Assembly: GCA_907163375.1 (NCBI GenBank)
Contig: CAJQUW010003387.1
Location: 363,166 to 427,165, forward strand
Reading direction: 5' to 3'
DNA length: 64,000 bases
Source of the DNA: Prostheceraeus crozeri
Lineage: Eukaryota > Platyhelminthes > Polycladida > Euryleptidae
A program made the translations under genes and the position numbers. Below the pieces are notes generated by a model, which did not search any database, was not told the origin of the DNA, and worked only from the letters and a program-made list of their open reading frames with translations. Position 1 is the first letter of the stretch, and the number at the start of each line of letters is the position of its first letter. Shown one piece after another: positions 40,580 through 63,194 of the stretch.

Positions 40580-41641
40580 ATGTCAGAGTCCCAGTACATG
40601 AAGAAGGTGGATGCATTGGAGAAAAAGTCTCAGATTTTGGCCTCTGTCAATAACGGTGGTGAATGGAGACAATTGGCTACAAGTTTAGATGTGAAAACGT
40701 CGACTGCATATCGATGGATTTGCGAAGGCGAAAAGTCTGACCGACGAGGAGGAAACCGTCGTCGCAAACTGAACGATGATGATCGTCAGTTTCTGATCAC
40801 GAGAATTGAGGATAATCCAAGGGTAACTCTGAATGATTTGAAGAATCAATTGAATTCAACATACAGTATCGTAGTTTCAAAGGAATGCATTCGACAGAAT
40901 TTAGATACTTCTCTATATACGTTGAAAGCTATACGTTTTGAACCAGAGAGGGCCAATATGCAAGTTTACAAAGAAATGCGGAAACAATTTGCAACCGATC
41001 TTTTACATTATCAATCGATGAATTTGCCTGTCCTATATATGGATGAAACAAACTTCAGTCTCCATATCACAAGGAAAGAGGGTCGGTCACTTCGAGGAAC
41101 TCGATGTACAACAGTGGCTGCTGGAAGTCGAGGAGCCAACGCACATCTCATTGGATGTATCAGCAGTATCTGTTTGATACACCATGAGGTTCGACTAGGA
41201 TCCTTCAAGAAAGAAGATGCCACAGAATGGGTCCGTGAATGCATGAGACGTGCCAATGAAATCTACAACTCTATTGTTGTGTTGGTCTTGGACAATGCCC
41301 TATGCCATGCTGGTATTGATGAAGTTATTCAGGATGAAGAGTTTCGGATGCATTTCATTTTGCGGCTAGCACCATACAGCCCGATGCTAAATCCAATCGA
41401 GCGAGCATGGTCATGTTTAAAAGCCGGTGAAAAGCAGACTTGCAGAGCAGATGCAGAGTATACCTTGTTACCTTCCAACGATCATGCAGGCATCAGTCAA
41501 ACTGAAGCGAGATTACGACAGCTTGAGAGTGCGATAGTCAACTCAATACCAGAAATAACACCAAGCAAATGTGCGAATTTCGTGGCGTCCATCCAGAACC
41601 TACTACTTAGTGTGTTGAACCTCGAAGACGTTCATTTCTAA
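40580..41641 (+). CDS. Tc1/IS630-type DD35E transposase, intact
   Basis: 353 uninterrupted codons. The N-terminus is helix-turn-helix (LATSLDVKTSTAYRWICEGE), then a second DNA-binding helical region (LKNQLNSTYSIVVSKECIR). DDE catalytic domain: first Asp in VLYMDETNFSL (about residue 153), second in VLVLDNALCHAG (about 237), Glu in PMLNPIERAWSCLK, 35 residues after the second Asp. The family cuts and pastes DNA at TA sites. A TATATAAG box sits at 40504-40511. I found no terminal inverted repeats on either side, so it is either an element with diverged ends or a captured, host- or Maverick-associated gene. It is the only transposase in the window with an unbroken frame, and so the youngest or under selection. 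Confidence 0.85.
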   Translation: MSESQYMKKVDALEKKSQILASVNNGGEWRQLATSLDVKTSTAYRWICEGEKSDRRGGNRRRKLNDDDRQFLITRIEDNPRVTLNDLKNQLNSTYSIVVSKECIRQNLDTSLYTLKAIRFEPERANMQVYKEMRKQFATDLLHYQSMNLPVLYMDETNFSLHITRKEGRSLRGTRCTTVAAGSRGANAHLIGCISSICLIHHEVRLGSFKKEDATEWVRECMRRANEIYNSIVVLVLDNALCHAGIDEVIQDEEFRMHFILRLAPYSPMLNPIERAWSCLKAGEKQTCRADAEYTLLPSNDHAGISQTEARLRQLESAIVNSIPEITPSKCANFVASIQNLLLSVLNLEDVHF

Positions 41642-42667: not shown

Positions 42668-42745
42668 TCCAATGAGGATCATCATCTAATGAGAATCAAG
42701 CATTTCTATATAAATAGCAAGCCTTCAACAGTGAGAATCATTCCA
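42668..42745 (+). promoter_or_regulatory. CCAAT/TATA/Inr promoter of the left Maverick genes
   Basis: CCAAT at about 42669, TATATAAATAG at 42707-42717 and TCATTC at 42738-42743 (initiator, A at 42740, 33 bp after the TATA start). This is a near-textbook pol II core promoter, with a second inverted CCAAT (ATTGG) near 42623. It would drive the leader exon and the plus-strand gene cluster that follows. Confidence 0.75.
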
Positions 42746-42819
42746 TCGTTGAATCACACGAGTGACGGACGCACATTTTCTCTCTCTCTAGTTCCCTATT
42801 CTATTATCCAACTAAAATG

Positions 42820-42886
42820 GTAAGTCGCTACTATCCTCCCTCTCCTCCCTTGAACGTAAACTTAATACAATCTTTTTCATTTTCAG
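42820..42886 (+). other. predicted intron directly after a leader ATG
   Basis: The leader ends AAAATG at 42817-42819 and is followed immediately by the donor GTAAGT. A pyrimidine-rich tract (TCTTTTTCATTTTCAG) ends at 42886. The splice signals are strong. Joining to this acceptor places the ATG out of frame with the main downstream frame, giving a ~43-codon upstream ORF. The leader could use other acceptors (see findings). Confidence 0.6.
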
Positions 42887-42920
42887 GCATCTACTCCATC
42901 TGCTGCACTAGTAGGACAAA

Positions 42921-45201: not shown

Positions 45202-45567
45202 ATGGAGAAACGTAAAATGGCGAAACGTAAAAGTCAAAAGTCTTCAAAGTTTTCTTCAGCCATTCAAGCTCTCCGACGAATGAAAGCAAATCAGCGATAC
45301 AATGCTATACGACATGCCAACGATAAATTCATTCGTGAAATTATTTCTCATGTCAGAAAGTTGAGGACGAAGAAATTAGCGCCAAAACAACGAAAGTTAC
45401 TTAAGCGATATGCCACAAAATTGCGTTTCATCTCCAATCCTAAAGTCACCCTTCAAAGAAAGAGGAAAACTCTAACACAAAAGGGCGGTTTCCTTTCAGC
45501 AATACTTCCAAAGTTAGCTCCTGTCGTGGGCAACCTATTGGGTAATATCTTTGGCTCTAAGCGTTAA
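45202..45567 (+). CDS. basic Maverick core/pVI-like protein
   Basis: 121 codons, about one third Lys/Arg. The first 90 residues form basic helices (IQALRRMKANQRYNAIRH, LRTKKLAPKQRKLLKR). The C-terminus is QKGGFLSAILPKLAPVVGN plus a short glycine-rich end, an amphipathic stretch directly after a Gly-Gly. In adenovirus and adintovirus virions the adenain protease cuts after Gly-Gly-type sites and releases membrane-active amphipathic peptides. The layout fits that class, but it is an inference. The ATG at 45217 is an alternative start. Intact. It is followed by the ATPase gene 32 bases on. Confidence 0.6.
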   Translation: MEKRKMAKRKSQKSSKFSSAIQALRRMKANQRYNAIRHANDKFIREIISHVRKLRTKKLAPKQRKLLKRYATKLRFISNPKVTLQRKRKTLTQKGGFLSAILPKLAPVVGNLLGNIFGSKR

Positions 45568-45598
45568 TTATGCAAATGTTGAATCTCAAAGTATTAAA

Positions 45599-46220
45599 AT
45601 GGATTTCGGACTTCAATGTGATAAAGTTCTGACTGTATCAGGTCCATCTCATGCAGGTAAAACTGTTTTCACGCTGAATTTATTGGATAAAAGAAGGGAG
45701 TTGTTTAAGGAACCTATCAATCGAGTGATTTGGTGTTATGGTATTTATCAACCGTCGCTGTTTCAGGAATTGCAAAGTCGCAACTTTATTCGACATGAAG
45801 GAATTATTCCAGTGGATAAACTTCAGTCTAATGATGTTGTTGTATTGGATGATTTATTAAAAGAAAGTAAGAATTCAAAAGATGTTGCAGATAATTATGT
45901 TCACTCGTGCAGCACATCATAAAAGGTGTTTTATCATCTATATCACACAAAATTTGTTTCCTGATGGAAAAGAAGCTCGTACACGAAACCTGAATACACA
46001 CTATTATGCTATTTTCAAGAATCCGCGAGATAAAAGTCAATTTGAAATTTTAGCGCGACAAGTTGCACCCAGAGGATCAAAAGCCTTAATTGAAATTTTT
46101 CAAGCAGCTACTGAAAAACCATACGGTTACTTATTCATTGACTTTACGCAAGAATGTCCGGAAGAATTTAGATTTCGAAGTGATATTTTGAAAACTCCCA
46201 TGATTATCTACAAACTATGA
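45599..46220 (+). pseudogene. Maverick DNA-packaging ATPase, frameshifted
   Basis: FtsK/HerA-type P-loop ATPase that in this virus-like group drives genome packaging. Walker A is GPSHAGKT (residues 15-22), and Walker B is NDVVVLDDLL (about 83-92). The frame shifts by +1 within 45882-45922; the second frame continues with HHKRCFIIYITQNLF (sensor-type strand) and runs to TGA 46218-46220. Total length about 205 codons, near family size, so only the shift breaks it. The start is the ATG at 45599. The last codon overlaps the next gene's ATG (CTATGA). Confidence 0.85.
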
Positions 46221-46910: not shown

Positions 46911-47126
46911 ATGAAGCAGATGTGTTGCTTGCCATGTAATGAGCCGCCAGAGGTGAATGTCGTTGTCACTTGCACTTGCTGCGCCAGCTCTCACAATGAA
47001 ACCCCTAAGCAATGTGAACACGATCGCAAAACCGCTAAAGCTAAATGCTGCAGTTGTTGTAAATGTAGAAAGGCAAGAAAACAAAAAGATGAGAAGGAGA
47101 AAAAAGAGTCAGTCGTCATCGACTGA
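46911..47126 (+). CDS. small cysteine-rich protein overlapping the integrase gene
   Basis: 71 codons with 12 Cys: CCLPC, CTCC, then CCSCCKC, and a Lys/Glu-rich charged tail. The clusters suggest metal binding. The ATG is one base after the previous stop. The last 38 bases overlap the likely integrase start (47089) in another frame. I do not recognise the family. The regular placement in a packed gene row supports it being real; the alternative is that the region encodes only an N-terminal extension of the integrase. Confidence 0.5.
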   Translation: MKQMCCLPCNEPPEVNVVVTCTCCASSHNETPKQCEHDRKTAKAKCCSCCKCRKARKQKDEKEKKESVVID

Positions 47127-48177
47127 ACGTTTGAAGTCAATCTATTATGATGTAAAACATCCGGCAGGATTTGCATCTATCAAGAAATTATCAAAAGCGA
47201 GTGGTCTTCCACAATCACAAGTGAAACGATGGTTAAAGGGTCAGGCTACCTATACACTCCACAAACAAGCGAAAAAGAAGTACCGCACCCGCCATTATAT
47301 TGTTCATGACATCGATGAACAGTGGCAAGCAGATTTGTGTGATGTTGCCTCCATTTCAAAACATAACTCGGGCAATAATTTTATTTTAACCGTCATTGAT
47401 ATTTTCTCGCGTTATGCGTGGGCTCAACCTTTAAAAACTAAAGAAGGGAAAGGAGTAGCAAAAGCATTCCAAACAATTTTTCGAGAAGGTCGCATTCCAA
47501 AAAGAATTCAGAGTGATCAAGGAAAAGAGTTTGAAAATCAGCATGTGAGAAGATTATTTGAGAGGCATGACATTGAGTTGTTTAGTGTAAAGAGTGCTTA
47601 TAAAGCTGCACTCGTTGAACGTTTTAATCGCACATTAAAAAATCGCTTGTGGCGACATTTTACTGCCAACTTGACACAAAATTGGACAAAGGTTCTACAA
47701 GATACACTCCATGCCTACAATCACTCTATCCATCGTTCTATTGGACTCAGACCAGGAGATGTAAATGCTGACAATGTAGATAAAGTGCGCGAATCATTCC
47801 AACGTAAACGCACTCATGTGAAAAGTGATGTGAAAATTGGTGATAAAGTTCGTATCTCAAAAGTGAAAAGTGTTTTTGCTAAAGGGTACCTTCCGAATTG
47901 GACAGAGGAGGTATTTACAGTATCAAGGATTAATCAAAAAGACTCTCCGACCACCTACAAGTTGAAAGATTACGATAATGAAGAAATTGAGGGTAGCTTT
48001 TACCGCGATGAGATTGAGGTAGTCACTGAAAGTGAAACATATTTGGTAGAGAAAATCATTCGATGTAAAAAACGGCAAGGTGAAGAATAGTGTCTTGTTA
48101 AATGGACTGGTTATCCTTCAAGTATGAACTCTTGGATGCGTCGTGCCGACATCTTTCATCTAGGTGATCGACAGTGA
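47089..48177 (+). pseudogene. int: Maverick retroviral-type integrase with chromodomain, one in-frame stop
   Basis: DDE integrase that inserts the element. The ATG at 47089 follows the Cys-rich ORF. N-terminal helix-turn-helix-like region KKLSKASGLPQSQVKRWLKG. Catalytic core: first Asp in WQADLCDVAS, second in RIQSDQGKEF, Glu in KAALVERFNRTLKNR, then the C-terminal beta-barrel (VKIGDKVRISKVKSVF). The frame ends at TAG 48088-48090 inside a chromodomain whose start is YLVEKIIRCKK. The same frame then continues with LVKWTGYPSSMNSWM, the second half of the chromodomain, to TGA 48175-48177. Chromodomains steer insertion into marked chromatin. The catalytic part is intact. Confidence 0.93.
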
Positions 48178-48676: not shown

Positions 48677-49954
48677 ATGGAGTGTAAAACTTCCGGTTTT
48701 TGTTTGTTTGATCAACAAGCCATACAGACAGATATTCTTAGTTGAAGTATTGTAGATTATCATCCTCGAACAGCTGAGAATGCTGGCCCCATTGAATTTG
48801 TTATTCCTGGTGGTAGTGATGACTACATAGATTTCAGTTATGCGATGGCTGATTTGAGGTTTAGAATTCAGCAAGCAGATGGAACTGCTATTGACGATAC
48901 ACATAAAGTTGGACTGAACAATTTACCATTGACTACATTACTTCGTGATGTTTCTCTAACGATTGGAGAGCAGCAGGTGGAAGGTGGTCAAAGCGATTAT
49001 CCCTATAAATCATATTTCAATCATGTATCACAGTTTCATCCAGCAGCACAAAAAAGTCATATGGAAGCCATGGGATGGTACAGAGATGAAGCAGGAAAAT
49101 TTGATGTTGAAACAAACAGTGGCTTTGTAAAGCGATCTGCTATGATTAAAGATAGTAGAGTATGTCAGCTATATGGTCCGCTGAATTTAGACTTCTTTAG
49201 ACAGTCAAAGTTTTTACTCTGTAATACCAGCATGCGACTCAAGCTGACATTGAATAAGCCTGAATTTGCGCTGAATGCATTTGCTAAAGTTGACAATTTT
49301 AGAATTCATGTGGAAGATATTGCACTTTACATTCGTCGAGTAGTACCGAATCCAAGTGTCATTAGAGGACATGCTGAAGGTCTTAACCGCCAAAATGCCA
49401 TTTACCCCGTTCAGAATACAAAGCTTCTCACCTTTGCAATTCCTAAAGATCAAAAGAGTTTCATGAAAGATGGCCTCTTTCCATCGGAAGCACCGAAGCT
49501 CCTCATGGTGGCAATGGTTGAAAATGATGCATTTAATGGTAATATAAAGAAGAATCCTTTCAATTTTAAACACAATCAGTTAAGTGAAATTGCTTTACGT
49601 GTAAATGGTGTGAGTCATCCTGGTCCACCCTACAAACCAGATTTTGCTGCGGATCAATTTATGCGCAGTTATGTTGATTTTATGGATGTCTTTGGCTTTT
49701 ACAATACGGATGACACCAACGGACTCACTATGAAAGAGTTTAAGAGTGGATATACTATTTATGCATTTGATTTGACTGCTGACAGCGATATTAGTGCCCC
49801 CTATCGTCAAGCGAACGTGCCTCATAATATTCGTTTGGATTTGACGTTCAAAAGAACACTACCTGAGACGATCAATGTATTAATTTATGCAGTCTTCGAT
49901 TCAAATATTGAAATTACAAAGTATCGTGACGTGATTCTTCAGTATAATCGTTAA
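48677..49954 (+). pseudogene. Maverick major-capsid-protein candidate, one in-frame stop
   Basis: The ATG at 48677 is three bases after the previous stop. The frame runs 22 codons to TGA at 48743-48745, then on without break to 49954 (425 codons in all). It contains AENAGPIEFVIPGGSDDYID, LRDVSLTIGEQQVEGG and QSDYPYKSYFNHVSQF (a strongly conserved DYPY-type block), and beta-rich repeats to the end. It belongs to the family often labelled F54H12.2-like in invertebrate genomes, which travels with Mavericks and is the likely capsid (hexon-type jelly-roll) protein. That identification is from gene context and recalled annotation. An internal ATG at 48845 would skip the first 56 residues. Confidence 0.75.
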
Positions 49955-50415
49955 TGAGTTGGTTGACTGCTGACGATATTAAGACTAAAGTGCAGCGTAA
50001 TGCAGACGAAGCGACGTTGAAAGCTTTCGATAATGTCTATTCACTCGATACCTTACCACCTGCAGTAAATCACTATCCCATCTTTATTGTGCTAAACACT
50101 CATTCGCAGAATTTAGGCGGTGAGCATTGGAAAGCGATCTTTATTGGAGAAGACCGACGTGGTGAACTATTTGACTCTCTTGCTCAACCTCCAAATATAC
50201 CAACACAACAGTGGTTGAGAAAACATACGCGTCAATATCAGCGAAATTAACGCATACTACAACATCCACTTTCATCAACGTGTGGTGATTTTGTACTGTA
50301 CTTCATCTTAAAACGTTTACATGTATCTCGATTTGTATCTGTTATTCAAAACTTTTCATGTAATCCATCCTCTAATGAAAAAATGATTTGTAAGTTCTAT
50401 CATGATTTGAAATAA
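49954..50415 (+). pseudogene. adenain-type cysteine protease, one in-frame stop
   Basis: Matures virion proteins in Mavericks and adenoviruses. 153 codons. The catalytic His is His58 in LGGEHWKAIFI; the acidic partner Asp74 in GELFDSLAQ. The frame stops at TAA 50248-50250 (codon 99), then continues in phase with the oxyanion Gln and the nucleophile Cys (codons 103 and 110, block LSSTCGDFVLYF). The stop therefore removes the active-site Cys. The ATG overlaps the capsid stop (TAATG). The final stop overlaps the poly(A) signal at 50411-50416. Confidence 0.87.
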
Positions 50416-50446
50416 AAACATCATGTTGGAAAAATTGTTTTTTATT
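50411..50446. terminator. facing poly(A) signals of convergent genes
   Basis: AATAAA at 50411-50416 (plus) ends the protease side. TTTATT at 50441-50446 is AATAAA on the minus strand and ends the TBP-like side. Only about 30 bp separate two opposing transcription units. Confidence 0.7.
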
Positions 50447-50987
50447 TTACAATCCGCTGGGTACGTACATACTCGATGAGATAGTCTAGGATCACATTTG
50501 CTTGTACATGAGATTTTAATCCAGTAATGATCACTTTACTATTATGAAGGATTGCCACATGCACAGGTAACCAACAACTAATGAGAGCTGCAGGAAAAAG
50601 TTCGGGTTCATAACACAAATTGTAACTGCTGGTACGAATCTTCAAAAATGATACACTTTCACTCAATTGAGTAGAGATCACCATATTGTCCACAGTCAGA
50701 TTTGACATCACACACCTCTCCCTCTTCCATATCCGACGTAGTAGTCTTTGTAGCTCTAAGCGCATTGACTGCGCCGATGAATGAGAAAGGGCGCCGAGAA
50801 TCTGTACAGTCCCATTTGGGAAGAGTTGAAGATTCCGTGAATTGTTCACCTTCACCACTAACATTTGAGGTCGGCCTGGGTAATACTTGCTGTTTGGAAA
50901 GTGTTGGTGTAATGTTGTAAGATCGATTTTGGTGTAGAGTCTGAAGCGACGGAGAATGTTGACGATGGTGTAGCGATGCCGCTTCAT
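50442..50987 (-). CDS. TATA-binding-protein-like protein
   Basis: 181 codons from ATG 50987 (the frame is open upstream to 51131). Two half-repeats show the TBP pattern. In the first, VNILRRFRLYTKIDLTTLHQ, then a Y-x-P turn (KYYPGRPQMLVV) and LFPNGTVQILGALSHSSA. In the second, CYEPELFPAALISC, then AILHNSKVIITGLKSHVQAN and VILDYLIEYV. In true TBP the same order reads YEPELFPGLI followed by a SGK-VLTGAK strand. Length (about 180 residues) equals the TBP core. DNA-contact phenylalanines are mostly not conserved, so specificity may differ. It may direct transcription of the element's own TATA promoters. No break was seen. Confidence 0.6.
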   Translation of the reverse strand: MKRHRYTIVNILRRFRLYTKIDLTTLHQHFPNSKYYPGRPQMLVVKVNNSRNLQLFPNGTVQILGALSHSSAQSMRLELQRLLRRIWKRERCVMSNLTVDNMVISTQLSESVSFLKIRTSSYNLCYEPELFPAALISCWLPVHVAILHNSKVIITGLKSHVQANVILDYLIEYVRTQRIVK

Positions 50988-51309
50988 GATGAAAGAATGA
51001 GTAAATTGAGCGATGTACCTTCCTTTTATACTTCTCCCAACTACCTTGATGAAATGTGAAGTTAGTATGAAGTTGGGAATGATAGAGTTGAATTCGCCGA
51101 TTGTTGACGCGCAGCCAGATGCGATTTCCAATACGTGAATGTCTTTTCATATAGAAGTATTTCAAATCCTTCATGATATGATGTAGAGATTGAAAATGAC
51201 GATAAGATAAAGCAAACTCTCTTCTCACATTTCCAGTTGAATCTTTGAAATAGACGTTTCGATCATGATCCGTTTCAATACGTTGTAGGGAATCTAATTT
51301 CCAACTCAT
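50960..51309 (-). CDS. possible PC4-like protein, paralogue 2
   Basis: Frame opens at ATG 51309 with SWKLDSLQRIETDHDRNVYF, then ALSYRHFQSLHHIMKDLKYF, RIWLRVNNRRIQLYHSQL, and SWEKYKRKVHRSIYSFFHH. It parallels the neighbour at 51332-51700 block for block. The homologous part ends near 50960; the frame itself stays open to 50659, overlapping the TBP-like gene in another phase, and that tail has no counterpart in the paralogue. The strand-turn-helix order with a dGn-v/GItLt-like block recalls the PC4/p15 single-strand-DNA-binding fold, but the match is weak. It may be a new family. Confidence 0.45.
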
Positions 51310-51331: not shown

Positions 51332-51700
51332 TTAAGATTTGCATAGTAGGGCGATGAACTCACGACGAATAAATGTCATGATGGAGCGATGTATGTATCT
51401 TCTATACTTCTCCCAATTGTATTTGCGAAATGAGAAACAGTTTGCGGAATGAGAATGGCAGATTTGAATTTCATTTCTGTAATGTTGAAGCCAAACTTGA
51501 TCACCCAAGGAGATGAATCTTAATGTTTCAAAATATTCCAAATCCCTCATGATATCATTGAGGTTGACAAATTGTCGCCATGTTAATGTAATACCTCTTG
51601 ATGAATGACCATGAGAATTTTTGAAATGTACGTTTCCATCACGATCAACTCTGATATATTGTAGAGAGTCCAAAATCCAAGTCTTCATGATGTTATGCAA
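51332..51700 (-). CDS. possible PC4-like protein, paralogue 1
   Basis: 122 codons, intact. ILDSLQYIRVDRDGNVHFKN, then SRGITLTWRQFVNLNDIMRD, LGDQVWLQHYRNEIQICHSH, NWEKYRRYIHRSIMTFIRRE. The blocks match paralogue 2 in order and spacing, so the pair arose by tandem duplication. The gap to paralogue 2 is 22 bp. The start lies 23 bp from the divergent structural gene at 51724. PC4-like is tentative. An internal ATG 12 bases in is an alternative start. Confidence 0.5.
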   Translation of the reverse strand: MHNIMKTWILDSLQYIRVDRDGNVHFKNSHGHSSRGITLTWRQFVNLNDIMRDLEYFETLRFISLGDQVWLQHYRNEIQICHSHSANCFSFRKYNWEKYRRYIHRSIMTFIRREFIALLCKS

Positions 51701-51723: not shown

Positions 51724-53121
51724 ATGTCGTTTTATCATATTTTGCTTAGCAATGCGGCTACAAAGAGATTTGCTAGTAATCGAGCCGCACTCTTTTCTAC
51801 TCCCATTGATCATACACAACAGCTAAATGGAAATTGGGAAGTGGGTGTCACTCAACTTGTTTATAGCAACTGTGTCTATACTTTTGATCATGAGGTGATG
51901 ACTATTAATATGAGACGCACAGCTGCTTACCAATGTGAAAAGGGCTGCCGAGTATACATTCCACAGTGGCCAAAGAAAGATCTCTTATCATGTAAAAAGT
52001 TTATATATGATTTCTTGAATAAAGCGTGTAAACATATTGTCCAATTTACTCCGCACAATGATGATTATAATTATGTACATCATGTAGTTGAGAAAGATTG
52101 GATTGTTGGTTTAAGTCCAAGTTTAAGAAATCATTTAGGTTACCTCGCTAGCGCCTTAACAAGCTATGATAATTTTAATGTTAATTACCACATAAGTGGT
52201 CATAAACAGTTAATATATCGAGAGGAAGCTTATTATGTAGATCTTATTCCAAGAAATGAGAAGACGTTGGTGAAGAAGATTGTGATTAAGCCAAGAAAGA
52301 CAAACATGACTCCTGAAACATTATTGAAGAAATTTAATTATCTCCTTCGAGTTGATGGTAAACAAGTGGCAACATTGACTTATATCAAATCATCTAATCA
52401 TATTGCAATAAGTAAATTAAATGATGATGATCTAGTATTAGTTTGTTCAAAAGATTTTCATCAGTTCTTACGACATCATTCTGCAGCTGTTCATGGAAAA
52501 TTTGATATGCAACATTCACCATGTGAAAGGTCAAATCAATTTGATACAGAATGGACCGTATCTTTATACAGAAAGTGTGTAGAGCCTTTCGGTGGTATCT
52601 TACATGAAACAAGAGTGTTGATGCCTCGCATTATTACTTCGGTTAAATTGGTTGTAGATTATTTAAATGAAGTGATTAATGAGCAACATATTTCATTTTC
52701 TGAAAAAGAAGGTGTTTTGTCTCTCACTATAAGTGGAAAAGGTATTGAACTAATTATGGATAAAACTCTAATGGACATTTTGGGTTTTGATCAAAATATC
52801 TTTAAAAGTGGTACTGTAACCAAAGCTAGCGCAGACATGTCGCTATCGCGTCGTATTAACTATTTTCAGATATATTCCAATATTGGTGAAGATGTACGTG
52901 TGGGAGATGTTGAAGCTCCATTGCTAGCAATGATACCATACCAGCCAAAAAGCTGCAGTATTTTATCTGAGCATACTTTCAAGAAAGTGCATTATACAAA
53001 GCTGAAATCAAACTACATCCCACAAATTGATATTGCAATTTATGACGATGCTGGTGCGTTGATTCCTTTTCATAAAGATGCTGTGACAAGTATCACACTC
53101 CATTTCCGAATGAAGAGTTAA
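51724..53121 (+). CDS. Maverick structural protein, three-module paralogue 1
   Basis: 465 codons, intact. N-terminal strand block LNGNWEVGVTQLVYSN. It is followed by three repeats of the same module, each with a helix carrying Leu-Asn (KKFIYDFLNKAC; ETLLKKFNYLLR; KLVVDYLNEVIN), a strand pair, and a closing helix with Leu/Gly-Phe (LRNHLGYLA; FHQFLRHHS; LMDILGFDQ). The end (IAIYDDAGALIPFH, SITLHFRMK) is beta-rich. I infer a virion surface or penton/fibre-type protein, common next to the capsid gene in invertebrate Mavericks. No enzyme motif. Paralogue of the next gene. Confidence 0.65.
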   Translation: MSFYHILLSNAATKRFASNRAALFSTPIDHTQQLNGNWEVGVTQLVYSNCVYTFDHEVMTINMRRTAAYQCEKGCRVYIPQWPKKDLLSCKKFIYDFLNKACKHIVQFTPHNDDYNYVHHVVEKDWIVGLSPSLRNHLGYLASALTSYDNFNVNYHISGHKQLIYREEAYYVDLIPRNEKTLVKKIVIKPRKTNMTPETLLKKFNYLLRVDGKQVATLTYIKSSNHIAISKLNDDDLVLVCSKDFHQFLRHHSAAVHGKFDMQHSPCERSNQFDTEWTVSLYRKCVEPFGGILHETRVLMPRIITSVKLVVDYLNEVINEQHISFSEKEGVLSLTISGKGIELIMDKTLMDILGFDQNIFKSGTVTKASADMSLSRRINYFQIYSNIGEDVRVGDVEAPLLAMIPYQPKSCSILSEHTFKKVHYTKLKSNYIPQIDIAIYDDAGALIPFHKDAVTSITLHFRMKS

Positions 53122-53160
53122 TGCAAAAGTATGCTAATATATTTTTCCAATGTGAATAAT

Positions 53161-54681
53161 ATGGAAAGTGAAAATAAGGACTCGTTTCTAATCTACTTAC
53201 CCAGTAATGCTTCTATGAATAAATTTCCCAAAAATAAACCATCAGACTATCGAGTAGAATTAAATCGCCCACTACATTTAGAAGGTGAATGGGAGGTTGG
53301 CGTTTCTAGTATTTGCTATGATAGCAATATTCAGAATGTGAATGATTTGGAAGAAATGATATTGACTCCTCGCACCCATGATGGAATAACGATGAATAAT
53401 GCATTCCAGTTCCCATACAATTTAACATCAGATGGAAAGTGGAACTATGAATGGATTCAGATAAAATCAGATTATTATGGTCTATTTGGGAATGAGAAAT
53501 TTATTAAGGCGTTCAATAGTGGTAATACTTCCATCATGAAGAATAAAAATCAGAAAGCTTATGAGTTTACTATCTATCATTGGAGTGGGAGACAGTTCCT
53601 TCGCTTTCATTCTTTTACTAAAGGTCTTACACTGAGGTTGGATAATGAATTCTATCCACATCTCGGTTTTGGTCATGGACTACATCTAACGTCAATTGCT
53701 ACTGCAAATGTTAAAAAAGTTTATTCAAATCGAATCAACAAATTTCATTATAAATTTAAAATATTTGATGAAGATGTTGTAGAATGCGAAGAACGCATCA
53801 TTTTGAAAAAGCGTGGTGTTCAACCTTTATCACTTATTGAGTTAGTAAAACGATGGAATGAGACTGTGGGTAAGAAGTATGGAGAGAAAATTATGGCGGA
53901 CAAAAATAAGTTGGTTATTCAGAAATATAATGACAAACTTACAGTTTATTTCTCTCCAACCTTGCGTCATTTTGTAAGACATTATACACCTATTATTGGA
54001 AGCGGTCTGGTGTATGCTTCTCATGAATATCACACTAAAGCTGATTCAGTTAATGATGAATGGTGGGTTGACATCTATGGTGATCGCATCAAGAAAATTT
54101 ACCAGTCTTATGAAGAATCTAAAGTTGCTATCAATATAATGCCGCGTCTATATCATACAGTTGAAAGCTTCATTCATGTAGTAAATCCTTATATACAACA
54201 GAAGTTGAAGCATGTGATGAAAAGTAAATATGATGTAAAGACACACCACATTTCGTTTTCAATTGAAAATCAACGCGTTGTTCTGAAACTGGGTGATGAC
54301 ATTCAATGTCAATTGAGTAAAAATTTGAAAAAACTCTTTGGTTTTTCAATGCTACAAACTGTGTTTACTGCTGCGCATACGATTGGTATAGAAACACCAA
54401 TGACACTTGATAAACATGAACAGCACCTTTACATTCAAAGTGATTTGATTCTACCTATTTCTGTTGGTGAGAAAAAAGAATACATTTTACGCGATTTCAT
54501 TCATGATAAAGACGCTTCATATGGAATAGTCGAGAAGATGTTTGAATCTATTTTCTATCATCCCGTCGTCAAACAAACTATACCCTCTATTGCTATCAAA
54601 ATTACCAATGGTTTACAAGAGTGCATCCATGTGAAAGATACTAAATCCCTCGTAACTTTAGTGTTTCGGAAAACAAAGTGA
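53161..54681 (+). CDS. Maverick structural protein, three-module paralogue 2
   Basis: 506 codons, intact. Start taken at ATG 53161 because SFLIYLPSNASMNKF aligns with the start of paralogue 1; an upstream ATG at 53131 adds ten codons. N-terminal block LEGEWEVGVSSICYDSN. Three modules as in paralogue 1 (helix EKFIKAFNSG, closing YPHLGFG; helix IELVKRWNET, closing LRHFVRHYT; helix ESFIHVVNPY, closing LKKLFGFSM). The conserved RH-Y/H-S/T and LGF closings tie the two proteins together. It ends 40 bp after a similar gap to its neighbour, and poly(A) signals follow directly. Confidence 0.65.
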   Translation: MESENKDSFLIYLPSNASMNKFPKNKPSDYRVELNRPLHLEGEWEVGVSSICYDSNIQNVNDLEEMILTPRTHDGITMNNAFQFPYNLTSDGKWNYEWIQIKSDYYGLFGNEKFIKAFNSGNTSIMKNKNQKAYEFTIYHWSGRQFLRFHSFTKGLTLRLDNEFYPHLGFGHGLHLTSIATANVKKVYSNRINKFHYKFKIFDEDVVECEERIILKKRGVQPLSLIELVKRWNETVGKKYGEKIMADKNKLVIQKYNDKLTVYFSPTLRHFVRHYTPIIGSGLVYASHEYHTKADSVNDEWWVDIYGDRIKKIYQSYEESKVAINIMPRLYHTVESFIHVVNPYIQQKLKHVMKSKYDVKTHHISFSIENQRVVLKLGDDIQCQLSKNLKKLFGFSMLQTVFTAAHTIGIETPMTLDKHEQHLYIQSDLILPISVGEKKEYILRDFIHDKDASYGIVEKMFESIFYHPVVKQTIPSIAIKITNGLQECIHVKDTKSLVTLVFRKTK

Positions 54682-54860: not shown

Positions 54861-57800
54861 TTATGTCAATACATCTCCTGAATGTGGTAGCGTGAGTTTT
54901 ATTCTTTTGGGTGGAGGTATGTTTGTGTCAGGATGTCCATGTGGAAGAGATGTGTTATGTCCTATCCAACACCTCTTATCTTCCCATGCTGAAAGTGCTC
55001 GTTTCTTGAACGTGTGCGTTTTCACAGTATGAACTTGAGATTTTAAGATTGTCATATTGACAAACGTTATAGTTTTATTTTTATAGGCCTTCTTATAGGA
55101 CCGATGTTTCATTTTGTGAACAATGGATTTTGATATACCTTTAGCACGCTTAATACTATCTGCACATTCTTTTAATTTCATGGAATACATTTTAGGACGG
55201 AGGAGAATCATTTCATCTATTTCCTTTCCTGCTGTTTCATCCTTAAAACAACCAAGTTTGGCTTTATTCTGTATGGAATAGAGTGGATGAGTGGGGATTG
55301 TAGTTAGATGTGTCGAAATATTTTTCTAATGACTTGCCTACTTCATTAAAATTTAAATCTTTTTGAGTGGTAATTCCTAAAAAGAAACTATCTGTATCAC
55401 CACCCAGCAAGCGAACCTCTTTTACGAGAGGGCATGGTTTTAATATTTTGTAGAAGAGTTGATACATTTCAAGCTTGGAATAATCTAAAACGGCTTGCCC
55501 AATATAGATGGGTTTGCACAACTCAACTTCTGATTTTATCATTTTAACACCTACAAGATCCTCATCGATGATGTCTCTATCAATGAAAAGAGGTGATGAG
55601 GTCAATTTGTGATATTTTTGTTCATCAACGACTAGTTTGTAGTTCATACGTTTTCTAACATCCTCCATGGTCTTTCCGAAAAGACTGTTATTCTTATATT
55701 TATAAAAATCCTTTTCAAAATTATTTTGGGCGAGTGCACGTTTTTGACTGTTACTATCTATGTAGGGTTTGAGGAAGGCTTTCTGTCTAAATTTGATAAT
55801 GCGGTGAACTGACTTTAGAAGCATGCCCATTTCTAAATAGAATTTTAGTATGCAGAAGTGTACGAGATAATTTTTCTTATCATATTGGGTGAGTAAAAGT
55901 TTGCGGCATGGTTTGTACCTTGGCTGTCCACACTCTGTTAAGTTATTATGAAATTGTGACATGAATGGTGAAAACATATCTTCAGTCACTTCACCAGATT
56001 CAGGTGCGAGTGGGAAATCAGCAGTTTTATTTTTAATGCTATTTGGATAAATCAAATCCACTTCAAAATAATATCCCCAATCACCTTCATCTGGAATCTT
56101 CAGTATGTTTGAAGGGTTGGAGTAATACTCAAGCTCATCTTGATTTAACCAACTAAACTCGGAATGAGGTAGTGGTTTAGACAGTGAACTGCCATATAAA
56201 ATTAATTTGGTCATAGTACTTTAGGTGGATATGATCATCACCTACTGTTTCAGATTTTATATGATGTTTATTTTACAAATGTGAGACCACCGCGTATTCC
56301 GCGCTCAAATATATTATACATCTCCGGGTCTTGTAAGAGATGAATGGTCTCACCAGTCATTTTAAAGGCTGATTTAAAGGACATGGCTGGTAGACTGACA
56401 AAGTGGACAGGATCTAATTTGTCTTCTTCTAATGCCACTCGTCGAAATTCCTGAAAGACATCAGCCAGCAAAATGACATCTAATTCTAAGTAAGCGATCA
56501 TAATAATCGCCAAACGTTTTACAATCAAATTTTAACCATGCCTCTTGAGCATGTTCATAATCTTCTACTGGACAATCTTCACCCGTCAAATCGTTTTGGA
56601 ATTTGTCAATGGAAGGAAGGGTTGTTTCATTTAGTTTAGACATTGAGCTAAAATACGCATAAGGAAAGACTCCTTTGCGAGTGATTATTTCATCCGTTAA
56701 GTTTGGATAGTGTTTCTTCAAAGTTTGACTATGGGGAAGAAACTTGAGATTACGAACGAGAGAAGCTAGTGACGCTGACATGAATTGGAATGAATCTAAA
56801 AATTTTATTTCGAAGAAGACTGTCTTATTTTCTTTAGTTTTATCTACTGGTACTTTTGCTGTCATTGCCATGAATTTTTCTCTCGTTTGCGCTATTACAT
56901 TAAACTGCCACGATTTCATCTGGCTCAACCCTCCTTTTATGAGCATATGACTGTCATAGCCCTTAAAGTTATGAAAAATGACGGGTAGTACACGACGTCT
57001 CAACCTAAGTGAAAAGTTACATTTGGAGCAGAGTGCGTTTCTAAATTTACCAGTGATGTGATCATGATCACGCACTTTCTTAATTTTATCGTCATCAAAC
57101 GTTTTATGACATTTAGGACAGGATGTGCAACTTTCAAATTTTTGTTTGTCTTCATCTGACATATGTAGTGACTTACGCTGCAATTGGGAATCATATGATT
57201 GTTGAAATTTAGCAGCTTTATCGAGAAATTCTAGAAATTTTGAAATGCAATCTTCACCTTGCCAAGTATGCATTTTGTTTTGTCTATTCCTAAAGTGGTC
57301 ATGCCATACTTCATAGCAGGATATGGCTGCTGGCTTGTGGATGATATCATCAATGTAGCATTCTATGTCTGCGTAAATGACACGCAGGGGACTTAATTCG
57401 TCACCATTATCCCTATGTGAAAATATTTTATCTTTGGGCATGCGTTCCATTTGTTAATTTACCTCGCTTGCACCATTCATAGTGAGTTTCAAATTTATCT
57501 TTACTCCAAAAGGGCGGATGCAGCGGTCGCATACAAAATGTTCACCTCTTTTAGAGTGCCCCAAGTGAGTGTACAAGCGAGAGATTTTGGGAATACCACA
57601 GTAGTGCCATTCCTCGCTATCATCTTGTTTTACTAATAAGAGGTTGACTACACGTTCATAACAAGTTGAACGTGAATTATAGCGGGCACCCTTCAACCCC
57701 TTCTCCCACACGTGAACTACAATTTTAATCTTATTATGTTTTTCGAACGTTTCTACATCTTTGATTTTTCATGTTGTTACTATCACAACCTTCAAAGTCT

Positions 57801-58729
57801 AGTTCATCCTCCCACTGTCTATAGCTATAGGTATAGATTTCGATTTGCGCGTTGATATCATTATAGTGAAGGATGGATAGGACTGCATATTTGAAACACT
57901 GTGATTTACAATCGACATTGATGACAGCTTTCTTATTATACAACGTTTTTGGTAGTTTAAATGTGCCTCGAGCTGCATGACTTTCTAATAGGGAAATTTT
58001 GAATATGGCTGAGTCCACACCATCAAAAATGAGAGCGCTGTTGCGTTGATTGAATTTATCTACATTTGATTTTAAACATTGAATGTGAAAATTTAGCCAA
58101 GACTCGCAGTCTACAACTTCAGTTGCGGAAGAGGAAGGAACATGAAACTGTATTCTCTCCGTCACTTGACCCGTTTGAAAATCTATCTTAATATACTTTA
58201 GTTTAAGGTAGATGAGCGCCTTCATTCTAAAATTGTCTAAATTGTTGAAGAGCGCTTCGATAATGTTAGAATTTTGAAGGAGCCACTCAGGAAAATCTAC
58301 TGTTTGAGTATTGGACTCCATGCAGTAGTCGCGTACTAAATTATTATGTGAAACATTAATGAGGGAGATGGTAGAGGTACCGTTGGTGTAGTGATCATTT
58401 GCATGCGTGTGTTGAAGTTTGTGCGAAGATCGCTGAAAGTGACTATCAAAAGAAAGAGGGCAGAAATCGCAAGGAAAGGAGATGTCATCGTCAGGATCAA
58501 CTTCACCTCCGGAGATTGACGCCGCTTTGCTTTGACACACACGTTGTTTGATGTGTCGAAGGAGACTGTGCTTCCTTGTAAACATATGTCCGCAGTCGGC
58601 ACATTCCCACTCGTTGCCTTGTCGCGAGAGTCCTGAGCTGGAACTCACATCACCTGAAAGAGAAATCATTCTATCATCTCTGTTCAAGTCTCTAGTGTAT
58701 TGTTTACAAACCATACTTCGACTCAACAA
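54861..58729 (-). pseudogene. polB: Maverick family B DNA polymerase with zinc fingers, multiply broken
   Basis: Read from 58729 leftwards, about 1,280 codons. Two C2H2 fingers (ECADCGHMFTRKHSLLRH; FPCDFCPLSFDSH), an N-terminal domain also present alone at 44414, exonuclease motif I VIYADIECYID, an endonuclease-VII-like Cys/His insert (SCPKCHK, RDHDHITGKFRNALCSKC), exonuclease motif II FHNFKGYDSHML, motif III YLELDVILLADVF, polymerase motif B KNNSLFGKT, motif C GGDTDSFF, and end RPKMYSMKLKE. Breaks: shift near 57770, TAA at 57454-57456, shift near 56490-56530, shift near 56270, shift near 56215 inside motif A, shift near 55290. It would have been protein-primed. All catalytic blocks survive in pieces. 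Confidence 0.95.
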
Positions 58730-58861
58730 ACTCTAAACTTTCCTCGAGAAGGTGAGGGCGTGTGGTGATGAAAGTTTGCTGATGCCTGAAATTGAGGAAG
58801 ATGGCTATTATCCCACACGTTTGGAGGGAGATGAGTGAAGAAATTTTAAAACTTAACCATT

Positions 58862-58967
58862 TCAAAAAACAAAACCCAACAAATTAAAAAACAAAAAAAA
58901 AAAAAGAAAGACAAGTAATGAAAAAAAAAAACAAGCAAAGTATGAAACGAGAAAAGACAAAAAAAAA
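58862..58967 (+). repeat. A-rich tract leading into poly(C)
   Basis: Runs of 10-14 A separated by short GAAAG/ACAAG words. Together with the following C tract it looks like a low-quality join rather than natural sequence. Confidence 0.6.
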
Positions 58968-60556
<1,589 letters not shown>

Positions 60557-60571
60557 CCACACGAAGGGGAA

Positions 60572-60928
60572 ATAAGGCTAACGATTGACACCGACAATTC
60601 AAAATGCAGAAAGTTGTCATTACCAGCGGACAACGAAGAGAGTGTATGTGAGAAGGAGTGTCCCGACTTAACAGGCGTGAGGTGGAAGTATCTCCAGTAC
60701 GATACTGACGATGTGATGGAGATCACCAGCACCAAATTCCTCCACCAATTATCGGAGTGGTACACCCCTAACTCCCAGCCACGAACTATGGCGGAGTGGG
60801 AGTATATCGACAAAGTGAGGCTCGCAGTGGAAGAACGATTAAAGCAAGTGAACTGTTTTTGTTATCTATGTGAAGCCAGACTCTGGGACGATATTGACGA
60901 TGAAGACCTTTTGAAATACATGCCATAA
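60572..60928 (+). CDS. hypothetical protein, 5' end lost in the C tract
   Basis: About 118 codons with no ATG before the C tract, so the start is missing. CPDLTGVRWKYLQYDTDD, FLHQLSEWYTPNSQPRTM, YIDKVRLAVEERLKQVN, then FCYLCEARLWDDIDDEDLL. Two Cys as C-x-C-x2-C near the end and an acidic tail. Composition is clearly protein-like. No family recognised. The stop overlaps an AATAAA. It is preceded by junk and followed by convergent minus-strand genes, in the compact style of the Maverick to the left. Confidence 0.5.
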   Translation: MRLTIDTDNSKCRKLSLPADNEESVCEKECPDLTGVRWKYLQYDTDDVMEITSTKFLHQLSEWYTPNSQPRTMAEWEYIDKVRLAVEERLKQVNCFCYLCEARLWDDIDDEDLLKYMP

Positions 60929-60980: not shown

Positions 60981-61590
60981 GCTTCAGTGGATGATTTAAC
61001 CATGTATACTTTTTCATTTGGAAATAGTAGCACGCTTAGTCTAACTTGTAAATCTTATAACATTTCATATGGGCGATGATGATAGATGAAATAGTGTCAA
61101 ATAAAATTAAGATAGCTTACACTTCTGATACAGGGATAGCAATCGACTGCGATCCATGTGTAAAGAGCTTGTTAGACTACGGATGGGCTTAAGTGGATGA
61201 TTTAACCATGTATACTTTTTCATTTGGAAATAGTAGCACGCTTAGTCTAACTTGTAAATCTTAAAACATTTCATATGGGCGATGATGATAGATGAAATAG
61301 TGTCAAATAAAATTAAGATAGCTTACACTTCTGATACAGGGATAGCAATCGACTGCGATCCATGTGTAAAGAGCTTGTTAGACTACGGATGGGCTTAAGT
61401 GGATGATTTAACCATGTATACTTTTTCATTTGGAAATAGTAGCACGCTTAGTCTAACTTGTAAATCTTAAAACATTTCATATGGGCGATGATGGATAGTT
61501 GAAATAGTGTTATAAATTAGATGGCATACACTTTGATCAGGATAGCATCGACTGCTATCCATTGTGTATAGAGCTTGTTAGACTTCGGAA
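60981..61590 (+). repeat. 206 bp tandem repeat, ~3 units
   Basis: Units start GCTTCAGTGGATGATTTAAC at 60981 and GCTTAAGTGGATGATTTAAC at 61187 and 61393. Units 1 and 2 are nearly identical. Unit 3 is good for ~110 bp, then carries many small deletions. No coding content. Confidence 0.9.
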
Positions 61591-61687
61591 GGAGAAGTGT
61601 GTTATGTTGCGTGTGGGCGTGATTGTCCTCCCATATCATTCATTCATCAATTCGTCTCATTGATAGAGACAGGTGAAATCATGGTTC

Positions 61688-62005
61688 TCATAAAAACGTA
61701 TGGCAATGGAAAGTTTTAGGAACTTTCGACAGTTGGGCTAAAATGTCGCCCTGACGGAATGCATACTTACGTTGAGACAGAGGCATCACTTGCCAAACAT
61801 GACGCAGAGAGGTTTTAAACAAGATTGGACCATTGCCGAATGGTCCCTTGCGGGTTATACATAGCTCGGGTTTCACGGCCGCTATACAGGAAACGCCCCG
61901 TCGAAAGGGAAGTATTACACGAACTTCATTTGCAACGTTCAAGTTGACTGATAGCAGATTCAACTTAATGATAGTATTCGCCAGTCCGAAGACTGCCCAG
62001 GGCAA
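61688..62005 (-). CDS. hypothetical protein
   Basis: 105-codon frame from ATG 62005. The first ~25 codons lie in upstream repeat R copy 1, so the true start may be further in. The rest reads ANEVRVILPFRRGVSCIAAV, PELCITRKGPFGNGPILF, LRHVWQVMPLSQRKYAFRQG: beta-rich and basic. No family recognised. Confidence 0.35.
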   Translation of the reverse strand: MPWAVFGLANTIIKLNLLSVNLNVANEVRVILPFRRGVSCIAAVKPELCITRKGPFGNGPILFKTSLRHVWQVMPLSQRKYAFRQGDILAQLSKVPKTFHCHTFL

Positions 62006-62084
62006 ACCGCGTGGAGGTTCTATCTTGTCTTGCCCTTGGTGGCCCTTAAGAGAAGCAGATGGTTCATTTTCGGGGTGTGAATTT
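61931..62084 (-). repeat. upstream repeat R, copy 1
   Basis: About 150 bp: AAGTTGACTGATAGCAGATTC, ATGATAGTATTCGCC, GTCCGAAGACTGCCCAGGGC, AACCGCGTGGAGGTTCTATC, then GGTGGCCCTTAAGAGA. Recurs at 62471 and 62953 in the same orientation. Confidence 0.85.
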
Positions 62085-62397
62085 AAGTTGATAATTGGCT
62101 GGAATAGTCAATGGGTATGACGTTAGGGTTGTCATAGAACCCTATACCGCCTAGCTCGTGTATGGTGCATCTGGCACCTTTCGGATGCGAGTGGTATTTG
62201 GAAGTCCACACCCAATCCCGTTCCAACGGATCTTCTCGATTCTTTCCTTCTTATCTTTCTCTCATCCCACTCGTCGAGGATGACGAACTCTGGGAATGGC
62301 TGTTTGTCTCATCGAATGAAGACGGGGAATGCTGTTGGCAGGAGACGTTGCTTTTCCATCGTGGCTTGAAATTGAATGAGAAGCGCTACTATCTCTG

Positions 62398-62410
62398 GCT
62401 TATATAGGGT
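62398..62410 (-). promoter_or_regulatory. TATA box (unit 2)
   Basis: CCCTATATAAGCC on the minus strand, about 45 bp before an ATG at 62359 that opens only 16 codons before a stop. It lies between repeat R copy 2 and that ATG, as in unit 3, so it may belong to a decayed gene (62160-62360). Confidence 0.45.
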
Positions 62411-62470
62411 TTTCAAACAATGAATTGACTCAACAGCGAATCAGGAATGCTTCAGGGATAGCATCAACTG

Positions 62471-62624
62471 CTAACGATCAAGTTGACTGATAGCAGATTC
62501 ATCTGTAATGATAGTTATTCGCCTGTCCGAAGACTGCCAGGGCAGAACCGCGAGGTGATTCTATTTTTCAAATCTTGTCCCATGGTGGCCCTTAGAGAAG
62601 CGGTGGTTCGTTCTGGGAGTAACG
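62471..62624 (-). repeat. upstream repeat R, copy 2
   Basis: A more diverged copy of R with small indels (for example GCCTGTCCGAAGACTGCCAG and CCGCGAGGTGATTC). Confidence 0.8.
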
Positions 62625-62715
62625 TCATTCTTACACCCTACCAATTCTGCTGAGAGGAGTCTTTGACTCTCTCTTTGGTAGCACTGTCGAACTTCCCTCA
62701 CTAACTGGCACATGG

Positions 62716-62898
62716 CTAAAAGTGGAATGTAGCGCATTCCGTTGGATTGACAACAGTGCTGTTCATCGGATTGCCAATCCGAGCAAGATTATTGTGGACT
62801 CTGTCTTGCTCCTCTAGCCTGACAAACTCCTCAAATAAATTTCGCGGCTTTAACTGCGGTCCGCGACGAGAGCTGACTTGACTGTTCGGCGTCTGCAT
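62716..62898 (-). CDS. small hypothetical protein behind a TATA box
   Basis: 60 codons from ATG 62898. MQTPNSQVSSRRGPQLKPRN, then FEEFVRLEEQDRVHNNLARI. A basic start and an amphipathic, charged helix. The open frame continues upstream to 63126 but that part lies in repeat R and the TATA region, so the internal ATG is preferred. No family recognised. Confidence 0.45.
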   Translation of the reverse strand: MQTPNSQVSSRRGPQLKPRNLFEEFVRLEEQDRVHNNLARIGNPMNSTVVNPTECATFHF

Positions 62899-62930
62899 GA
62901 TTGAAATGAAATGAAATGAGAGGCAGTGGT

Positions 62931-62941
62931 TTATATACCCC
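62931..62941 (-). promoter_or_regulatory. TATA box (unit 3)
   Basis: GGGTATATAA on the minus strand, 33-42 bp upstream of the ATG at 62898. It is flanked downstream by a TCATT repeat and upstream by repeat R copy 3. Confidence 0.5.
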
Positions 62942-62952
62942 TCTAACGCGAC

Positions 62953-63107
62953 GCAACGTTCAAGTTGACTGATAGCAGATTCAACTAAATGATAGTATTC
63001 GCCAGTCCGACGACTGCCCAGGGCAAACCGCGTGGAGGTTCTATCATGTGTTGCCCCTAGGTGGCCCTTAAGAGAGCCGATGGTTCGTTCTCGGGAGTGA
63101 ATTGATG
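62953..63107 (-). repeat. upstream repeat R, copy 3
   Basis: Close to copy 1 over ~150 bp (a few substitutions), placed directly upstream of the unit 3 TATA box. Its position before small minus-strand genes suggests a shared enhancer or promoter block. Confidence 0.85.
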
Positions 63108-63194
63108 GGGTGGTGAAGGCGGGCAAAGATCTGCAATGAAAATGATATGTATTAGAATAGGATATACTATCTTATTTACTTTTCACTTACCAAG

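What the first reader, a model, noticed from the sequence alone, without database searches (positions are those of the whole stretch)
50442..50987. A TATA-binding-protein-like gene inside a Maverick
A ~180-residue frame shows two half-repeats in TBP order, including YEPELFP and a K-V-IITG-K strand. I am not aware of TBP homologues among standard Maverick genes. With the TATA boxes at 42707 and on the minus strand near 62400 and 62935 it suggests the element carries its own promoter-recognition factor.
Basis: partly seen in the sequence, partly recalled or inferred. Interest (0 to 1): 0.85.

Follow-up and report, generated by a model that had tools for sequence, protein, structure and literature searches.

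The report
Maverick virus-transposon carrying a TATA-binding protein
A decayed virus-like transposon (Maverick), in what looks like an animal genome, carries an intact gene for its own version of the TATA-binding protein that helps start gene transcription, which suggests that such elements use their own factor to steer the host's RNA polymerase to viral genes.

The parts
50442..50987 (-). Intact TBP-like gene, 181 aa, ATG to stop
51023..51030 (-). TATAAAAG box; a CA (TCATTC) initiator-like site lies 32 nt downstream, itself 11 nt before the TBP ATG. The box lies inside the overlapping PUR2 coding frame
   Evidence: Only TATAAAAG in the element region (9 in the whole window, 4.0 expected); Ile-Lys, which implies TATAAAR there, recurs at the same place in 9 of 12 relatives with >=15 upstream residues. 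Spacing counted by eye; promoter function inferred
50971..51309 (-). PUR2: gene for a PUR/PC4-type protein (homologous part, about 113 aa), directly upstream of TBP; its frame stays open into the TBP gene, to 50659 (216 aa in all)
   Evidence: 43% identical to P0062 over the aligned part; upstream residues compatible with this frame in 10 of 12 testable TBP relatives
51332..51688 (-). PUR1: tandem paralogue of PUR2, 118 aa, predicted double PUR/PC4-type fold (bbbba twice)
48845..49954 (+). Major capsid protein candidate (open part; the same frame upstream, from ATG 48677, carries an in-frame stop)
   Evidence: 306 homologues at E<=0.001, about 425 aa in most of the 120 listed; DJR-like domain PF21738 in 2 of 40 scanned, best E 5e-4; stop seen
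46957..48090 (+). Retroviral-type integrase (rve), 377 aa
   Evidence: PF00665 E=5.4e-11
45551..46220 (+). Packaging ATPase candidate in two overlapping ORFs (broken), Walker-A-like GPSHAGKT
   Evidence: ORFs; no significant Pfam hit; assignment by motif and gene order, recalled
49954..50250 (+). Adenain-like protease candidate (short, 98 aa)
   Evidence: ORF; no Pfam hit; assignment by position and an HW motif, recalled
55264..58729 (-). Family B DNA polymerase candidate, broken into several ORFs, with endonuclease VII and C2H2 zinc-finger domains
   Evidence: PF02945 E=5.9e-7; DNA_pol_B_2 E=0.011, below its cut-off, on 56271-56528; zf-C2H2 E=7.7e-5, just below its cut-off; DTDS and DIE motifs by eye
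51724..54681 (+). Two consecutive large ORFs (465 and 516 aa) whose N-termini look related by eye; possible virion or accessory proteins of the element
   Evidence: no Pfam match at E<=1
42709..42887 (+). Left-end promoter and split 5' exon: TATAAATA at 42709, TCATTC about 31 nt later, ATG 42817 followed at once by a GTAAGT donor, TTTTCAG acceptor ending at 42886
   Evidence: splice sites by eye; a similar acceptor region (83% over 30 nt, E 0.095) precedes the PolB candidate at 58781-58810 minus

Best explanation
The gene is a diverged TBP carried as a regular gene of a Maverick/Polinton (adintovirus-like) lineage. The host's own machinery transcribes it first, from a TATA/initiator promoter. 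The protein then bends TATA-like DNA at the element's promoters. Its C-lobe is close to canonical and its N-lobe has an altered, more polar groove face. It recruits host TFIIB through the preserved Glu-x-Glu-Leu stirrup and so brings host RNA polymerase II to the viral genes. Because the N-lobe basic patch is largely lost, it should largely escape TFIIA, TAF1 and Mot1 control. The neighbouring PUR/PC4-like proteins probably bind single-stranded DNA at melted promoters or at replicating viral DNA. Shown here: TBP homology and predicted fold, a family of relatives, an upstream neighbourhood compatible with conservation, residue conservation. Inferred: DNA binding, TFIIB and Pol II recruitment, selectivity for viral promoters, timing.
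For: TBP identity. Family of 60 homologues. Residue counts over 57 aligned sequences, yeast numbering: N69 N in 49 of 49 without a gap, N159 N 57/57, V161 V 57/57, F116 F 57/57, F190 F 56/57, P191 P 57/57, F207 F 56/57, T215 T 57/57, TFIIB glutamates E186 56/57 and E188 57/57. N-lobe changes: F99 to P 56/57, L114 to Q 54/57, V122 to Q 57/57, T124 to L 51/57, V71 to M 37/57. Regulator patch: K97 to G 56/57, K138 to E or D 45/57. KSHV ORF24, which binds viral late promoters and recruits host Pol II, has S and N at L114 and V122 (PMC12529657 Table 1). No TFIIB or RNA polymerase match among the 24 window ORFs scanned against Pfam, so a host TFIIB would be needed. The left-end gene looks spliced, which would imply nuclear Pol II transcription (by eye).
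Against: No binding or expression data. TATA-like motifs are not enriched in the 100 nt upstream of 11 element genes (TATAWA 2 of 11, control mean 0.7, P = 0.17; TATTWA 2 of 11, P = 0.24; TATWWAA 2 of 11, P = 0.08; one start, PUR1, was taken 3 nt off). The window's own copy has Leu at the F207 wedge position, Phe in the other 56, so this copy may be weakened. The C-lobe is not wholly canonical: L205 is Ala in 43/57, V213 is Ile in 43/57. The likeness to ORF24 fails at T124 (Asn there, Leu here). The patch is not gone everywhere: K145 is Arg or Lys in 24/57. The L114 match rests on where one gap is placed (MAFFT; HMMER places it one residue off). The element copy is decayed (capsid stop, split ATPase and PolB candidates). 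Contig linkage of TBP to the capsid gene in relatives is not significant (one shared contig length, P = 0.42). The two contigs that by length seem to hold close capsid and PUR relatives (12,876 and 11,119 nt) gave no TBP row; an overlapping gene call may hide it, but this was not verified.
Confidence: 0.6

Rival explanations
1. Host shut-off decoy: the viral TBP occupies host TATA promoters or titrates TFIIB without productive initiation, reducing host transcription.
For: TFIIB-contact residues kept while the patch used by TFIIA and TAF1 is largely lost, which could give a non-productive complex.
Against: Strong conservation of both DNA-contact Asn and of most wedge Phe over a divergent family fits specific promoter use as well or better; an element without a recognised RNA polymerase gene needs host Pol II for its own genes.
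Confidence: 0.13
2. Architectural DNA-bending factor for replication, packaging or integration, acting with the PUR-like proteins rather than in transcription.
For: Neighbour genes with a predicted single-strand-binding type fold; no enrichment of TATA-like motifs upstream of the element's genes.
Against: Retention of the TFIIB Glu pair at 56/57 and 57/57 is unexplained if TFIIB is not bound.
Confidence: 0.15
3. Recent capture of a host TBP or TBP paralogue, or a host gene lying by chance in the region.
For: Eukaryotic genomes carry TBP paralogues (general knowledge).
Against: Only 18-26% identity to eukaryotic and archaeal TBPs in structural alignments, a separate family with its own invariant residues, an uninterrupted frame, and a position among element genes with a neighbour that seems conserved.
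Confidence: 0.04

Closest known systems
Cellular TBP (PF00352; yeast, human, archaeal)
   Same: Two-lobe saddle fold, both DNA-contact Asn, three of four wedge Phe in most relatives, TFIIB Glu pair
   Different: 18-26% identity; no N-terminal extension; N-lobe wedge F99 is Pro, L114 and V122 are Gln; basic regulator patch on the N-lobe largely lost
Herpesvirus late TBP mimic (KSHV ORF24 and relatives)
   Same: Virus-encoded TBP fold in a virus that uses host Pol II; N-lobe groove face polar at L114 and V122
   Different: ORF24 runs to residue 752, with a Pol II-binding N-terminal domain and a DNA-binding C-terminal domain, lacks the TFIIB glutamates and keeps both N-lobe Phe; this protein is a bare 181-aa TBP that keeps the glutamates and has lost F99
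TBPs of large DNA viruses (for example Heterosigma akashiwo virus, Mimiviridae, abalone asfa-like B263R homologue)
   Same: Virus-encoded TBP fold (BFVD matches)
   Different: For almost all viruses with a TBP a TFIIB-like protein was detected, and C.L3.2 is conserved in only ~40% of viral TBPs (PMC7221094); here the Glu pair is kept and no TFIIB was found. Four of BFVD's seven best rows, the first included (A0A5P9U4S6, 20% identity), carry no name, so their viruses are unknown to me
Mavericks/Polintons and adintoviruses
   Same: Integrase, DJR-type capsid candidate, PolB candidate with fused domains, about 16 kb gene block in a host genome
   Different: A TBP gene and a PUR/PC4-like pair are not mentioned in the passages and term searches seen

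Membership tests
TATA-binding protein family (PF00352) | Two TBP half-repeats above the Pfam cut-off | tested here: met
   66.1 bits against 22.9, two stretches
TATA-binding protein family (PF00352) | Saddle fold | tested here: met
TATA-binding protein family (PF00352) | Conserved DNA-contact Asn (N69, N159) and wedge Phe pairs (F99/F116, F190/F207) | tested here: inconclusive
   Both Asn kept; F116 and F190 kept; F99 is Pro in 56/57; F207 kept in 56/57 but Leu in the window copy
TATA-binding protein family (PF00352) | TFIIB-contact glutamates in the C-lobe stirrup | tested here: met
   E127 (56/57) and E129 (57/57); role from PMC7221094 section 11; equating them with yeast E186/E188 is my mapping, partly recalled (PMC12529657 writes E184 and E188)
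TATA-binding protein family (PF00352) | Binds and bends TATA DNA, supports Pol II initiation | not testable with these tools
   Needs biochemistry
Maverick/Polinton element | Retroviral-type integrase | tested here: met
   PF00665 E=5.4e-11
[quoted passage not shown]
   Broken gene; DNA_pol_B_2 E=0.011, below cut-off; endonuclease VII domain E=5.9e-7
Maverick/Polinton element | Double jelly-roll major capsid protein | tested here: inconclusive
   306 homologues; PF21738 in 2 of 40 relatives scanned, best E=5e-4; no PDB sequence match; not folded here
Maverick/Polinton element | Packaging ATPase and adenain-like protease | tested here: inconclusive
   No significant Pfam hit; motifs by eye only
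Maverick/Polinton element | Terminal inverted repeats and 6-bp target duplication | tested here: inconclusive
   Only a 30-nt 83% match at 42863-42891 / 58781-58810; the right flank is low-complexity sequence; the duplication was not sought
PUR/PC4/Whirly fold proteins (neighbour genes) | Repeated bbbba ssDNA-binding fold | tested here: inconclusive
Herpesvirus-type viral pre-initiation factor | N-terminal Pol II CTD-binding domain | tested here: not met
   The protein is the TBP core alone, 181 aa

The most novel reading that the evidence does not exclude
A lineage of Mavericks runs a dedicated promoter-selection system: a TBP with a re-engineered N-lobe reads non-canonical viral promoters, couples to host TFIIB and Pol II while ignoring host TBP regulators, and works with PUR/PC4-like partners. 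That would be a minimal viral initiation module in a small integrating virus without its own polymerase, built independently of the herpesvirus solution but with polar changes at the same two groove positions.
Probability: 0.4. Interest if true: 0.85.

Novelty: new variant of a known kind. Interest (0 to 1): 0.72.

Why it matters
Virus-encoded TBPs have been reported from large DNA viruses and from herpesviruses (PMC11410667, PMC7498053). A TBP in a small Maverick that must use host Pol II makes it directly testable how little is needed to redirect Pol II to viral promoters. Keeping the TFIIB contact while losing most of the regulator patch separates two functions of TBP that are hard to separate in cells. 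It may also bear on where the TBPs of large DNA viruses came from, since Mavericks are often placed near the root of those viruses (general knowledge).

Tried and rejected
Relatives of the TBP, capsid and integrase in IMG/VR viral contigs (5 of 8 scans) and of the TBP and capsid in GTDB genome contigs: none confirmed, so no DNA of relatives could be read. Enrichment of TATA-like or TATT-like motifs upstream of 11 element genes: not significant. Shared contig lengths as a sign of linkage: significant for PUR with capsid (2 of 4 PUR relatives, P = 0.0006), marginal for PUR with TBP (1 of 4, P = 0.046), not significant for TBP with capsid (P = 0.42); only the 120 listed of 306 capsid homologues could be used, and equal length is not proof of one contig. 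The contigs of 12,876 and 11,119 nt showed no TBP row.

Literature: ten searches of the open-access library. Eight bear on a Maverick, Polinton or adintovirus TBP, one on PC4 (65), one on herpesviruses (75). None listed such a paper, but searches listed only 20 of 139, 20 of 44, 20 of 64 and 25 of 1,729 papers; some searches were listed in full. PMC7786948 and PMC12085832 (polinton with TBP), PMC11640650 (adintovirus with TATA) and the five papers were not opened. Most subscription papers and all supplements are outside what was searched.

Full report

Context. The gene lies between a capsid/protease block on the plus strand and two large plus-strand ORFs. The same block holds an rve integrase (E = 5.4e-11), a capsid candidate with 306 homologues (a double jelly-roll Pfam domain in 2 of 40 relatives scanned), an ATPase candidate in two overlapping ORFs, and a minus-strand PolB candidate broken into several ORFs with an endonuclease VII domain (E = 5.9e-7) and a sub-threshold DNA_pol_B_2 hit (E = 0.011). 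The capsid frame carries an in-frame stop upstream of 48845, while most listed relatives are about 425 residues long. So this looks like a decayed copy of a Maverick/Polinton-type element in which the TBP gene is intact. Neither end was proven: only a 30-nt 83% inverted match was found, and the right side runs into low-complexity sequence. At the left end, TATAAATA at 42709 is followed by an initiator-like TCATTC, an ATG with an immediate GTAAGT donor, and a TTTTCAG acceptor; a similar acceptor precedes the PolB candidate. If this reading by eye is right, the element uses splicing and so nuclear Pol II transcription.

Relatives. One search of 5.8 billion proteins gave 60 homologues at E <= 0.001, 34-81% identical, every one carrying PF00352. 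Aligned, 57 of the 61 sequences form a family with its own invariant residues (R39, M42, R51, F56, Q62, N101, V103, E129, P132, T155, G156 among others). Two clades are visible by eye. IMG/VR and GTDB scans confirmed no relatives, so no DNA context could be read. Indirect evidence of a conserved context: in the window the TBP start overlaps, in another frame, the end of the gene upstream (PUR2). In 10 of the 12 relatives with at least 15 residues upstream of the start, those residues are compatible with the PUR2 frame well beyond shuffles (P <= 0.016), and the excess is larger than for the third frame in all 10, though the third frame exceeds its shuffles in 9 of the 10 too. The 2 failures (P0048, P0056) belong to the second clade. 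In 9 of the 12, the residues Ile-Lys that imply TATAAAR lie exactly where the window has TATAAAAG. Since PUR2 coding also uses these bases, this supports but does not prove a conserved TATA box. Contig lengths link PUR with capsid in 2 of 4 PUR relatives (P = 0.0006) and PUR with TBP in 1 of 4 (P = 0.046), but TBP with capsid not significantly (P = 0.42).

Residues. I mapped the family onto a eukaryotic TBP (E. cuniculi, letters) and counted over 57 sequences. The list of DNA-contact positions is that of PMC12529657 Table 1. In the C-lobe N159, V161, P191 and T215 are kept in 57 of 57, F190 and F207 in 56 of 57; the window's copy is the exception at F207 (Leu). L205 (Ala in 43) and V213 (Ile in 43) differ. 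In the N-lobe N69 and F116 are kept wherever present (49 of 49 and 57 of 57), but F99 is Pro in 56, L114 is Gln in 54, V122 is Gln in 57, T124 is Leu in 51 and V71 is Met in 37. The L114 match depends on the placing of one gap. The glutamates that touch TFIIB (C.L3.2 and C.L3.4 of PMC7221094; yeast 186 and 188 by my mapping) are kept in 56 and 57. The positive N-lobe patch used by TFIIA, TAF1, Mot1 and Brf is largely lost: K97 is Gly in 56, K138 is Glu or Asp in 45, R141 is mixed; K145 is Arg or Lys in 24. The match of that paper's patch positions to these residues is my inference.

Mechanism. Of the window's ORFs, 24 were scanned against Pfam (one of them a Tc1-type transposase outside the element) and none matched TFIIB or an RNA polymerase. 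A strongly diverged TFIIB could be missed. A TBP that keeps the TFIIB contact in an element without TFIIB most simply uses host TFIIB and Pol II. This differs from most viral TBPs studied in PMC7221094, where C.L3.2 is conserved in only ~40% and almost all such viruses carry a TFIIB-like protein. It also differs from KSHV ORF24, which lacks the glutamates and binds Pol II through an added domain. Yet ORF24 has Ser and Asn at L114 and V122, where this family has Gln, and its late promoters carry a TATT motif. At T124 the two differ (Asn there, Leu here), and ORF24 keeps F99. The parallel suggests a changed reading of part of the box. I could not find the target motif: TATAWA, TATTWA and TATWWAA are not enriched upstream of 11 element genes (P = 0.17, 0.24, 0.08).

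Known or new. [quoted passage not shown] Polinton, adinto and Maverick do not occur), PMC11071308, PMC11071296 and PMC10120064 (term searches of the main text: no TBP, TATA or TFIIB), PMC8363768, PMC11464507 and PMC12220804 (passages). None of what I saw describes a TBP in a Maverick, Polinton or adintovirus, and the eight relevant library searches listed no such paper, four of them with capped lists. The library lacks most subscription papers, and four of the seven best viral structure matches are unnamed, so this is weak evidence of absence. I file it as a new variant of a known kind: a viral TBP, in a kind of element where I found none reported, with a distinctive pattern of kept and lost surfaces.

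On going back through the calls I narrowed the literature claim, added the C-lobe changes, the T124 difference, the gap caveat and the third-frame control, and moved the PUR fold from met to inconclusive.

Noticed in passing
51332-51688 and 50971-51309, minus: Two tandem paralogous genes with a predicted PUR/PC4/Whirly-type fold and no sequence-level family, next to the TBP gene.
   Followed up: yes
42709-42887: TATA box, initiator-like site and an ATG split from its gene by an apparent 67-nt GT-AG intron at the element's left end; a similar acceptor precedes the PolB candidate at 58781-58810.
   Followed up: partly
61000-63200: Repeated units with TATATAAA/G boxes (62937, 62406, minus) and short frames beyond the low-complexity tract; no Rfam match; link to the Maverick not shown.
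   Followed up: partly
58900-60590: Long G/C-skewed low-complexity tract giving meaningless poly-Pro and poly-Gly frames; possibly a satellite or assembly artefact at the element's right end.
   Followed up: no
40580-41641, plus: Uninterrupted 353-aa IS630/Tc1-type DDE transposase ORF (DDE_3 E=5.4e-17) just left of the element.
   Followed up: no
22394-23815, minus: GPCR-like seven-helix ORF judged by eye, suggesting an animal host genome.
   Followed up: no
57737-58729 and 56464-57450, minus: C2H2 zinc-finger match (just below its cut-off) at the start of the PolB region and an endonuclease VII domain in the next ORF.
   Followed up: partly
relative of the capsid gene at 48845-49954 (P0067): A capsid relative, 85% identical on an 11,119-nt contig, is filed in a genome bin named Pseudomonadota bacterium, so eukaryotic virus-like sequence may sit in that bin.
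   Followed up: no
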